Notes under the pieces: generated by a model
The model's database searches: none
Told to the model about the DNA's origin: nothing
The model's input: the letters and a program-made list of their open reading frames with translations, nothing else
NCBI GenBank assembly: GCA_903889245.1
Contig: CAISWQ010000113.1
Coordinates: forward strand, 1 to 33,326
From: an uncultured Lentisphaerota bacterium
Lineage (GTDB): Bacteria > Verrucomicrobiota > Kiritimatiellia > CAIQIC01
Length of the DNA: 33,326 nucleotides
Direction: 5' to 3'
Made by a program: the position numbers and the translations under genes
In this document: positions 31,837 through 33,326 of the stretch, piece by piece
Layout of the letters: each line of letters opens with the position of its first letter
Numbering within the stretch: the first letter of the stretch is position 1

Positions 31837-31907
31837 TTTCCAAGGCTTGGAAAATCCAACGCGAAATTTTCCGAGGCTTGGAAGCCGGACGCCGCCGGTT
31901 TCCAAGG
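31837..31907. repeat. Intergenic TTCCAA palindrome triplet, third copy cut by an insertion sequence
   Basis: Copies begin (TTCC) at 31838, 31869 and 31900, so both intervals are 31 bp. The second is TTCCGAGGCTTGGAA. The third stops after TTTCCAAGG where the IS110-type element begins. At the other end of the element the window closes with GCCTTGGA, the missing half. Confidence 0.85.
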
Positions 31908-32001
31908 TAAGATGAGAAGGCTGATCGCCCCGAGCTGTGATAGACACGCTCAAGAAACTAACGCAGTCCCAGTAAGGCTGCAGAAAGGCAGGCGATCAGC
32001 C

Positions 32002-33033
32002 GTGAAAGAAAATAACATCATCGGTATGGACCTGGGAGATAAAAAACATGTGGTGTGCGTGCTCAACGCCGCCGGCGCGGTGGTTGAGCAGACCTCCGTG
32101 GCCGCGACGCCGGAGGCGGTGGCGAAGTTCTTCCAACGCTTTCGCGGTGCCGTGGTGGCGATGGAAACGGGCACGCATTCGCGCTGGGTCAGCCGGCTCG
32201 CCACAGCGGCAGGCCTGGAGGCGCTGGTCGGGAACGCGCGTAAGCTGCGGGCGATCTGGGCCAATGAAAAGAAATCGGATGTGCGCGACGCGGAGATGCT
32301 GGCGCGGATTGCGCGTCTGGATCGCCAGCTGCTCTATCCGGTCCATCACCGTGACGAGGCGACGCAGGCGCAGTTGGTCTTGATCCAAGCCCGCGACGGT
32401 TTGGTCGGCGCGCGCAGCGCCTTGATCAATCAGGTGCACAGCCTGGTCAAGGGCTTCGGGGCGCGGCTCCGTAAGTGCAGCGCGGAATGTTTCCATAACG
32501 AAAAGTTGCCGGACGCCGTGGCCGCTGCCTTGGCTCCGGTCATGGAGACCATCGCACAACTCACCGCGCAGCTTCGTCACTATGATCGGGCAGTCACAGC
32601 ACAGGCCGCGACGCAGCCCGCCGTCCAGCGGTTGACTCAGGTGCCGGGCGTCGGCGACCTGACCGCGCTGGCGTTCGTGCTCACCCTCGACGAGGTGGGC
32701 CGCTTTGACAAGAGCCGGAGCGTCGGGGCTTTTCTGGGGCTGGTGCCACGGCGTGACCAATCCGGGCAGACGGACAAGCAGTTGCGCCTCACCAAGACGG
32801 GCGACCCGTAGGTGCGGCGCCTGCTCGTGGGCAGCGCCCATTATATCCTCGGCCCGTTCGGGCCGCCGTGCGACCTGCGCGCCCATGGCGCACGGATCGC
32901 CGCGCGCGGCGGCAAGAACGCCAAGAAGCGGGCGGTCGTGGCCGTCGCCCGCAAACTGGCGGTGCTCCTGCATGCTTTATGGAAACACGCGACGGACTAT
33001 CAACCGCAGCGGGTGCGGCCGTCCGCCGCGTAA
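32002..33033 (+). pseudogene. IS110-family transposase interrupted by UAG codon
   Basis: A 343-codon DEDD recombinase frame from GTG 32002 (AGGCAGG upstream) that carries TAG at 32809-32811 (codon 270). The RuvC-like part is intact: D10 in GMDLGDKKH, E55 in METGTHSRW, D93 and D96 in KKSDVRDAEM. The C-terminal Transposase_20 part has QVPGVGDLTALAF and VPRRDQSGQ with the family's catalytic serine (S254). The stop lies between TKTGDP and VRRLLVGSAHY, where relatives have a residue such as Tyr, so a single base change explains it. The frame continues cleanly to TAA at 33031-33033. The product would lack its last 74 residues. UAG is used as a true stop in the sulfatase gene at 5602, so reassignment is unlikely. 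Confidence 0.85.
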
Positions 33034-33303
33034 CGGAACACAACGGGCTTATAAGGTGAAACAGCGAAGGGGTAAGGCATGACCACCGTGTAACGACAGC
33101 GCGCGCACCGCGCGCAGAGCACGTCCCGTCCGGGCGACGACGATCCAAGGCTGGCACCGTAGAGTGCGTTTCCGAGGTGGTCGCGCCCACGACGGACCTT
33201 CCCGTGCACCGGAGTCCACGCTGACTCCCTCGAGAGTGCGAATGGAAGCCTGACGAGTGCTCACGCCTGATGCTGCGGTGTCCGCCACGGCGGACGCTTG
33301 ACT
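33034..33303 (+). ncRNA. Candidate guide RNA (bridge RNA / seekRNA) region of the IS1111-type element
   Basis: This 270-base stretch between the transposase stop and the right inverted repeat contains no gene. IS110-family elements encode a guide RNA in their non-coding end; in the IS1111 group it follows the transposase. Three pieces match the insertion site: CCAAGGCTGG at 33145-33154 and TTTCCGAGG at 33169-33177 resemble the palindrome target, and ATGGAAGCCT at 33242-33251 is identical to the right junction at 33313-33322. GC-rich hairpins such as TCCGCCACGGCGGA (33281-33294) are present. The boundaries of the RNA are not determined. Confidence 0.5.
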
Positions 33304-33326
33304 AGCCTTCTCATGGAAGCCTTGGA

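What the first reader, a model, noticed from the sequence alone, without database searches (positions are those of the whole stretch)
33034..33322. Guide-like matches to the target in the IS non-coding end
The 270 bases after the transposase contain CCAAGGCTGG (33145-33154), TTTCCGAGG (33169-33177) and ATGGAAGCCT (33242-33251). The last is identical to the right element-target junction (33313-33322), and the first two match target half-sites, including the TTCCGAGG variant seen in the neighbouring palindrome at 31869. This is what a bispecific bridge RNA/seekRNA should show and would make it possible to read target choice directly.
Basis: partly seen in the sequence, partly recalled or inferred. 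Interest (0 to 1): 0.62.

Follow-up and report, generated by a model that had tools for sequence, protein, structure and literature searches.

The report
Mobile element's target-reading guide RNA
A jumping gene in this bacterium carries a small RNA whose short segments pair with the DNA repeat it inserts into and with its own ends, and comparing it with 46 relatives shows the target segments change in step with the target; this is a new member of the recently described IS1111 'seekRNA/bridge RNA' family.

Summary
The element is an IS1111-group insertion sequence (31905-33317): DEDD transposase, 11-bp subterminal inverted repeats, 7/3-bp end extensions, and a promoter formed at the circle junction. 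It sits in a TTCCA^AGCCTTGGAA palindrome repeated through the host genome (about 900 near-exact sites, about 2,100 within two mismatches). A covariance model built from 31 relatives without the window finds the guide RNA at 33117-33253 (82.5 bits, E 1.3e-23). Segment 1 (33144-33152) is the exact complement of the right target. Segment 2 (33168-33176) copies the left target, with one G:T wobble. They lie in the order reported for IS1111 seekRNAs. Across 42-46 relatives both track each element's own target (0 of 20,000 permutations, also within clades). Segment 3 is different: its ATGGAAG/ATAGAAG core is in 47 of 48 relatives whatever their target and copies the element's right end plus core. 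It is the donor guide; its trailing CCT is only weakly supported as target-reading. A second donor guide (33198-33204) tracks the left-end extension. The transposase has an in-frame TAG, so this copy is probably not autonomous. New member of a known kind; covariation evidence for an IS1111 donor loop is the more interesting part.

The parts
31905..33317 (+). IS1111-group insertion sequence, 1413 bp
   Evidence: 7-bp/3-bp extension rule around subterminal inverted repeats; same layout in 52 other elements
31899..31904 (+). left target half TTTCCA
   Evidence: second copy has TTCCA at the same place
31905..31911 (+). left-end extension AGGTAAG (begins with core AG)
31912..31922 (+). left subterminal inverted repeat ATGAGAAGGCT
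   Evidence: exact inverted repeat with 33304-33314
31908..31913 (+). -10 (TAAGAT) of the circle-junction promoter
   Evidence: 17 bp from TTGACT once the ends are joined
32002..33033 (+). DEDD transposase gene (GTG start), interrupted by an in-frame TAG
   Evidence: PF01548 2.3e-21 and PF02371 5.2e-15 on residues 1-269
32809..32811 (+). in-frame TAG after residue 269
   Evidence: reading frame continues to 33033
33117..33253 (+). guide RNA (seekRNA/bridge RNA), target loop plus donor loop
   Evidence: covariance model built from 31 relatives without the window: 82.5 bits, E 1.3e-23
33132..33141 (+). 5' side of target-loop stem (GGGCGACGAC), pairs with 33180-33188
   Evidence: window changes UGC/GCA, invariant in the 31 relatives, to GAC/GUC, keeping the pairs
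33180..33188 (+). 3' side of target-loop stem (GTCGCGCCC)
33144..33152 (+). target guide 1, TCCAAGGCT, complement of right target AGCCTTGGA (top strand)
   Evidence: 9 of 9 Watson-Crick; tracks target in 42 elements
33168..33176 (+). target guide 2, GTTTCCGAG, same sense as left target GTTTCCAAG (pairs bottom strand)
   Evidence: 8 of 9 plus one G:T wobble; tracks target in 46 elements
33177..33178 (+). putative handshake nucleotides GT, equal to LE bases 3-4
   Evidence: position 1 tracks LE base 3 in 46 elements
33198..33204 (+). donor guide for the left end, CTTCCCG (reverse complement of AGGTAAG is CTTACCT), 5 of 7
   Evidence: this register tracks LE bases 4-7 in 43 elements
33242..33248 (+). 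donor guide for the right end, ATGGAAG = RE end plus core AG
   Evidence: ATGGAAG/ATAGAAG found in 47 of 48 elements examined whatever the target
33249..33251 (+). CCT, matches target bases next to the core; possible donor-loop handshake
   Evidence: weak: 0.8-3% of permutations
33280..33295 (+). short hairpin GTCCGCCACGGCGGAC near the right end
   Evidence: fold; role not tested
33298..33303 (+). -35 (TTGACT) of the circle-junction promoter
   Evidence: TTGAC in 38 of 47 elements
33304..33314 (+). right subterminal inverted repeat AGCCTTCTCAT
33315..33317 (+). right-end extension GGA
33318..33326 (+). right target half AGCCTTGGA(A), starts with core AG
31838..31883 (.). two more palindromes (31838, 31869) of the host repeat, 31 bp apart; the inserted one starts at 31900

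Best explanation
The right non-coding end of an IS1111-group element encodes a roughly 137-nt guide RNA with a target loop (33117 to about 33197) and a donor loop (about 33198-33253). In the target loop, TCCAAGGCT pairs with the top strand of the right target and GTTTCCGAG pairs with the bottom strand of the left target, both overlapping the core AG. In the donor loop, CTTCCCG faces the left end and ATGGAAG pairs with the bottom strand of the right end plus core. The transposase, guided by the RNA, would recombine the circular element (junction ...CATGGA-AG-GTAAG...) into TTCCA-AG-CCTTGGAA, a palindrome repeated through the host genome. Shown: ends, target, RNA structure, guide-target and guide-donor covariation. 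Inferred: transcription from the junction promoter, RNA-protein complex, strand exchange. This copy is probably non-autonomous because of the TAG.
For: Ends and 7/3 extensions as in IS1111 elements (PMC11187229). Order of guides (top-strand complement first) is the reported IS1111 order. Covariance model from other elements finds the RNA; stem supported by compensatory changes in 10 of 20 pairs and by two more in the window. Guides track targets: unconstrained scan 0 of 20,000 permutations for both sides, fixed register 0 of 20,000, within clades 0 of 20,000. Near-identical RNAs L105, L110 and L113 carry 10/10 complements of three different right targets. Left donor guide tracks LE bases 4-7, 0 of 20,000 within clades. 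The experimentally studied ISEc11 shows the same order by inspection: CAGTATT, GTGAAAAT, TACAT (left end), AATAAA (right end). Junction promoter TTGACT-17-TAAGAT.
Against: The transposase frame is broken by a TAG. No expression or transposition data. The left target guide has a wobble at the base next to the core, where 96% of relatives match exactly. The left donor guide is only 5 of 7. A reported short seekRNA (82 nt) suffices for ISEc11 transposition (PMC11187229), which seems to cover mainly the target loop, so the donor loop's necessity is not established. Permutation tests do not fully remove shared ancestry.
Confidence: 0.93

Rival explanations
1. The three matches are chance, or reflect base composition of a GC-rich stretch next to a common repeat.
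For: The segments are short (7-10 bases), and a repeat with thousands of copies offers many partners.
Against: 0 of 2,000 shuffles have both target matches in order; 42-46 relatives show the same relation with their own, different targets.
Confidence: 0.01
2. The matching segments are remnants of the host palindrome captured by the element (homology of descent), not guides; the transposase alone reads the target.
For: The genome is full of this palindrome, and the neighbouring copy at 31869 has the TTCCGAGG variant.
Against: The two segments lie at the fixed guide positions of a conserved RNA whose guides match unrelated targets in other phyla. Fragments of one palindrome would not fall either side of a hairpin in a defined register with opposite strand sense.
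Confidence: 0.03
3. The RNA reads only the target; the donor matches (ATGGAAG and CTTCCCG) are structural sequence, and the transposase recognises the ends through the inverted repeats.
For: ATGGAAG hardly varies, so it cannot show covariation. The short seekRNA suffices for ISEc11. Long inverted repeats could serve end recognition.
Against: The opposite donor-loop segment tracks LE bases 4-7 in one register, 0 of 20,000 within clades. ISEc11 carries comparable matches to its own different ends. Potential donor-binding nucleotides in IS1111 RNAs were already noted (PMC11208160).
Confidence: 0.2
4. The element is a dead relic and its guide RNA no longer acts.
For: In-frame TAG removes the last 74 residues; no other transposase of this family found in the assembly.
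Against: At least two copies share ends and flanks exactly; the non-coding region keeps compensatory changes. The assembly collapses copies, so an intact one may be hidden.
Confidence: 0.4

Closest known systems
IS1111-family insertion sequences with seekRNA (ISEc11, ISKpn4, ISPst6, ISPa11; PMC11187229)
   Same: Downstream non-coding region, subterminal inverted repeats, 7/3 extensions, DEDD transposase, guide order top-strand complement then bottom-strand match, junction promoter
   Different: A close viral-contig relative of this transposase is only 28% identical to ISEc11 over the aligned part; RNA too diverged for the model to find ISEc11 or IS4321; broken transposase; here a donor loop is supported by covariation
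IS110-group bridge RNA (IS621; PMC11208160, PMC11208158)
   Same: Bispecific RNA with target and donor loops, two-base core shared by target and donor, handshake-like bases
   Different: RNA is in the right end instead of the left, guide order reversed, long inverted repeats, core AG instead of CT
ISPa11 and IS621 targeting of REP palindromes
   Same: Uses a high-copy genomic palindrome as a landing site
   Different: Different palindrome (TTCCAAGGCTTGGAA), Kiritimatiellia host, copies spaced 31-32 bp

Membership tests
IS1111 group | DEDD transposase with PF01548 and PF02371 | tested here: met
   D10, E55, D93, D96 and SG at 254-255 invariant in A1
IS1111 group | Subterminal inverted repeats of about 11-13 bp | tested here: met
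   11 bp exact
IS1111 group | 7-bp left and 3-bp right extensions | tested here: met
   AGGTAAG / GGA; joined flanks restore TTTCCAAGCCTTGGAA. No sequenced empty site was available
IS1111 group | Long non-coding region downstream of tnp | tested here: met
   270 bases, 33034-33303
IS1111 group | Guide order: top-strand complement 5' of bottom-strand match | tested here: met
   33144-33152 then 33168-33176
IS1111 group | Promoter formed at the circle junction | tested here: met
   TTGACT-17 bp-TAAGAT, by sequence only
IS1111 group | Complete transposase reading frame | tested here: not met
   TAG at 32809-32811; this lowers 'active element', not membership by descent
IS1111 group | RNA co-purifies with transposase and is needed for movement | not testable with these tools
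   needs experiment
Bridge RNA (bispecific) | Separate donor loop matching both element ends | tested here: met
   right end ATGGAAG near-invariant; left-end guide tracks LE in 43 elements; 5 of 7 in the window itself
Bridge RNA (bispecific) | Handshake guide positions | tested here: inconclusive
   target loop: 0.91 versus 0.58-0.71, 0 of 20,000 within clades, but only 2-4 independent pairs on the tree; donor loop weak
Rfam families | Match to any curated RNA family | tested here: not met
   no meaningful match

The most novel reading that the evidence does not exclude
IS1111 guide RNAs are bispecific across the group: the 3' half of the long seekRNA is a donor loop that covaries with the left-end extension, and the target loop carries a handshake position on the opposite side of the core from IS621, consistent with the reversed guide order. 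This would give a function to the long seekRNA, which its discoverers left open.
Probability: 0.6. Interest if true: 0.55.

Novelty: new member of a known kind. Interest (0 to 1): 0.42.

Why it matters
The target of an uncultured bacterium's element can be read directly from its guide RNA, and the 47-element comparison gives covariation support for a donor loop in IS1111 RNAs. The seekRNA paper did not assign the long seekRNA a role, and the bridge RNA paper only noted potential donor-binding bases. The set also supplies natural reprogramming examples (L105/L110/L113) for programmable DNA insertion.

Tried and rejected
Rfam search gave only a sub-threshold hit. The exact 15-mer GAGTGCGAATGGAAG in viral contigs gave 22 stretches, of which only two (near-identical) are real elements. 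Guide regions of the multi-copy elements in G069 and G078 could not be recovered by pattern and only in fragments by model, so that within-genus comparison is incomplete. The model from this clade does not find ISEc11 or IS4321, so ISEc11 was compared by eye only. In the fixed-register 5'-guide test, five elements without a correct anchor were left out after inspection; the unconstrained test without that exclusion agrees. Reading segment 3 as a target guide was rejected: its core hardly varies. A literature search found no description of the palindrome, in open-access papers only.

Full report
Observation. In shuffles of the non-coding stretch, the right-target match was never reached in 2,000 trials, the left-target match in 5, and both in order never.

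The element. Ends follow the IS1111 rule: TTTCCA | AGGTAAG-ATGAGAAGGCT ... AGCCTTCTCAT-GGA | AGCCTTGGAA. The transposase has both family domains but a TAG at codon 270. The contig ends inside the right target; C61 continues it, and C111 gives a second left junction with the same target half. The 141-base overlap with C61 is what a branching assembly graph leaves, so at least two copies are collapsed (inference). Joining the ends gives TTGACT-17-TAAGAT, a promoter layout also seen in relatives, matching the junction promoter reported for the family (PMC11187229).

The target. TTCCAAGGCTTGGAA within two mismatches occurs about 2,100 times in 5.26 Mb against 7-9 for the reversed control; TTCC(A/G)AGCCTTGGAA occurs 909 times exactly, counting both strands. 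Copies often lie 31-32 bp apart, and the element occupies the third member of such a trio, starts 31838, 31869 and 31900. The palindrome is abundant in the genus (542-2,123 counts) and less so across the order and class. The sister species G002 has an 82%-identical, truncated relative with the same left target half. The host class is taken to be Kiritimatiellia, because G067 (same class) carries the same insertion as Kiritimatiellaeota bacterium B1221.

The RNA. Relatives were collected from genomes, viral contigs and related genomes; 53 elements, the window included, have clean ends, all beginning LF|AG and ending GGA|AG or AGA|AG (the search pattern required this form, so elements with other ends were skipped). 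Their non-coding regions share GACTGCG-[guide]-hairpin-[guide]-AG-ATTGCAGC, then TGCACC...GAGTGCG-ATGGAAG. A model from 31 of them, without the window, finds 33117-33253 with 82.5 bits, E 1.3e-23 and also finds the RNA in relatives left out of the model. Ten of 20 pairs show compensatory change. The window changes pairs that are invariant in the 31 relatives and keeps them paired.

Target guides. Scanning the whole non-coding region, complementarity to the element's own right and left targets exceeds that to other elements' targets in every one of 20,000 permutations (48 targets). In fixed register the left guide matches 4.13 of 5 bases and the right guide 7.93 of 10 (4.33 for others). Permuting only within clades changes nothing. 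L105, L110 and L113, nearly identical RNAs, have 10/10 complements of AGGGAAAGTC, AGACATAGTC and AGGGATAGTC. In the window the right guide is 9/9 and the left guide 8/9 plus one wobble. The order is that of IS1111 seekRNAs.

Donor guides. The three bases after it are CAT or CGT in 20 of 47 elements, and CCT in the window and five relatives with other targets; agreement with the target is slight (0.8-3% of permutations). Seven bases before TGCACC match the reverse complement of the left end at LE bases 4-7, best in that register, also within clades. The base after the core in the target loop tracks LE base 3, resembling the handshake guides of IS621 (PMC11208158) but on the other side of the core; independent changes are too few for a tree-based test. 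ISEc11 shows the same four segments in the same order by inspection of the sequence. A donor loop as part of IS1111 RNAs was suggested before (PMC11208160); the role of the long seekRNA was left open (PMC11187229).

Verdict. A new member of the IS1111 guide-RNA kind, probably non-autonomous here, with family-wide covariation that supports bispecific reading. Shown: sequence anatomy and covariation. Inferred: expression, complex formation and recombination.

Noticed in passing
window 5546/5577, 12793/12825, 20649/20681, 22941/22973, 31838/31869/31900; genome-wide: A 15-bp palindrome TTCCAAGGCTTGGAA with about 2,100 copies in 5.26 Mb, often in pairs or trios 31-32 bp apart and flanked by T and A runs; abundant in the genus and present across the order. 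Function unknown; no description found in the open library.
   Followed up: partly
window 32809-32811: In-frame TAG in the transposase; the frame continues to 33033. Seven of 38 long open stretches in the window end in TAG, so TAG appears to act as a stop here.
   Followed up: partly
L145, L147, L158, L160: Several Acidobacteriota elements share the right-target start AGGCSATTAC or AGGCGATAGC with TAACC/AAC left flanks, which looks like a common repeat or recombination site.
   Followed up: no
L177-L194: G069 and G078 (one genus) each hold 8-9 right ends of a related element; G069 copies sit before NACACAAA-type repeats and G078 copies before GCGGCTA, with very similar right ends.
   Followed up: partly
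L037 4026-5759 and L038: A relative lies in contigs classed as viral (IMG/VR), target ...GCACCGG|AGTGATCAAT with matching guides.
   Followed up: partly
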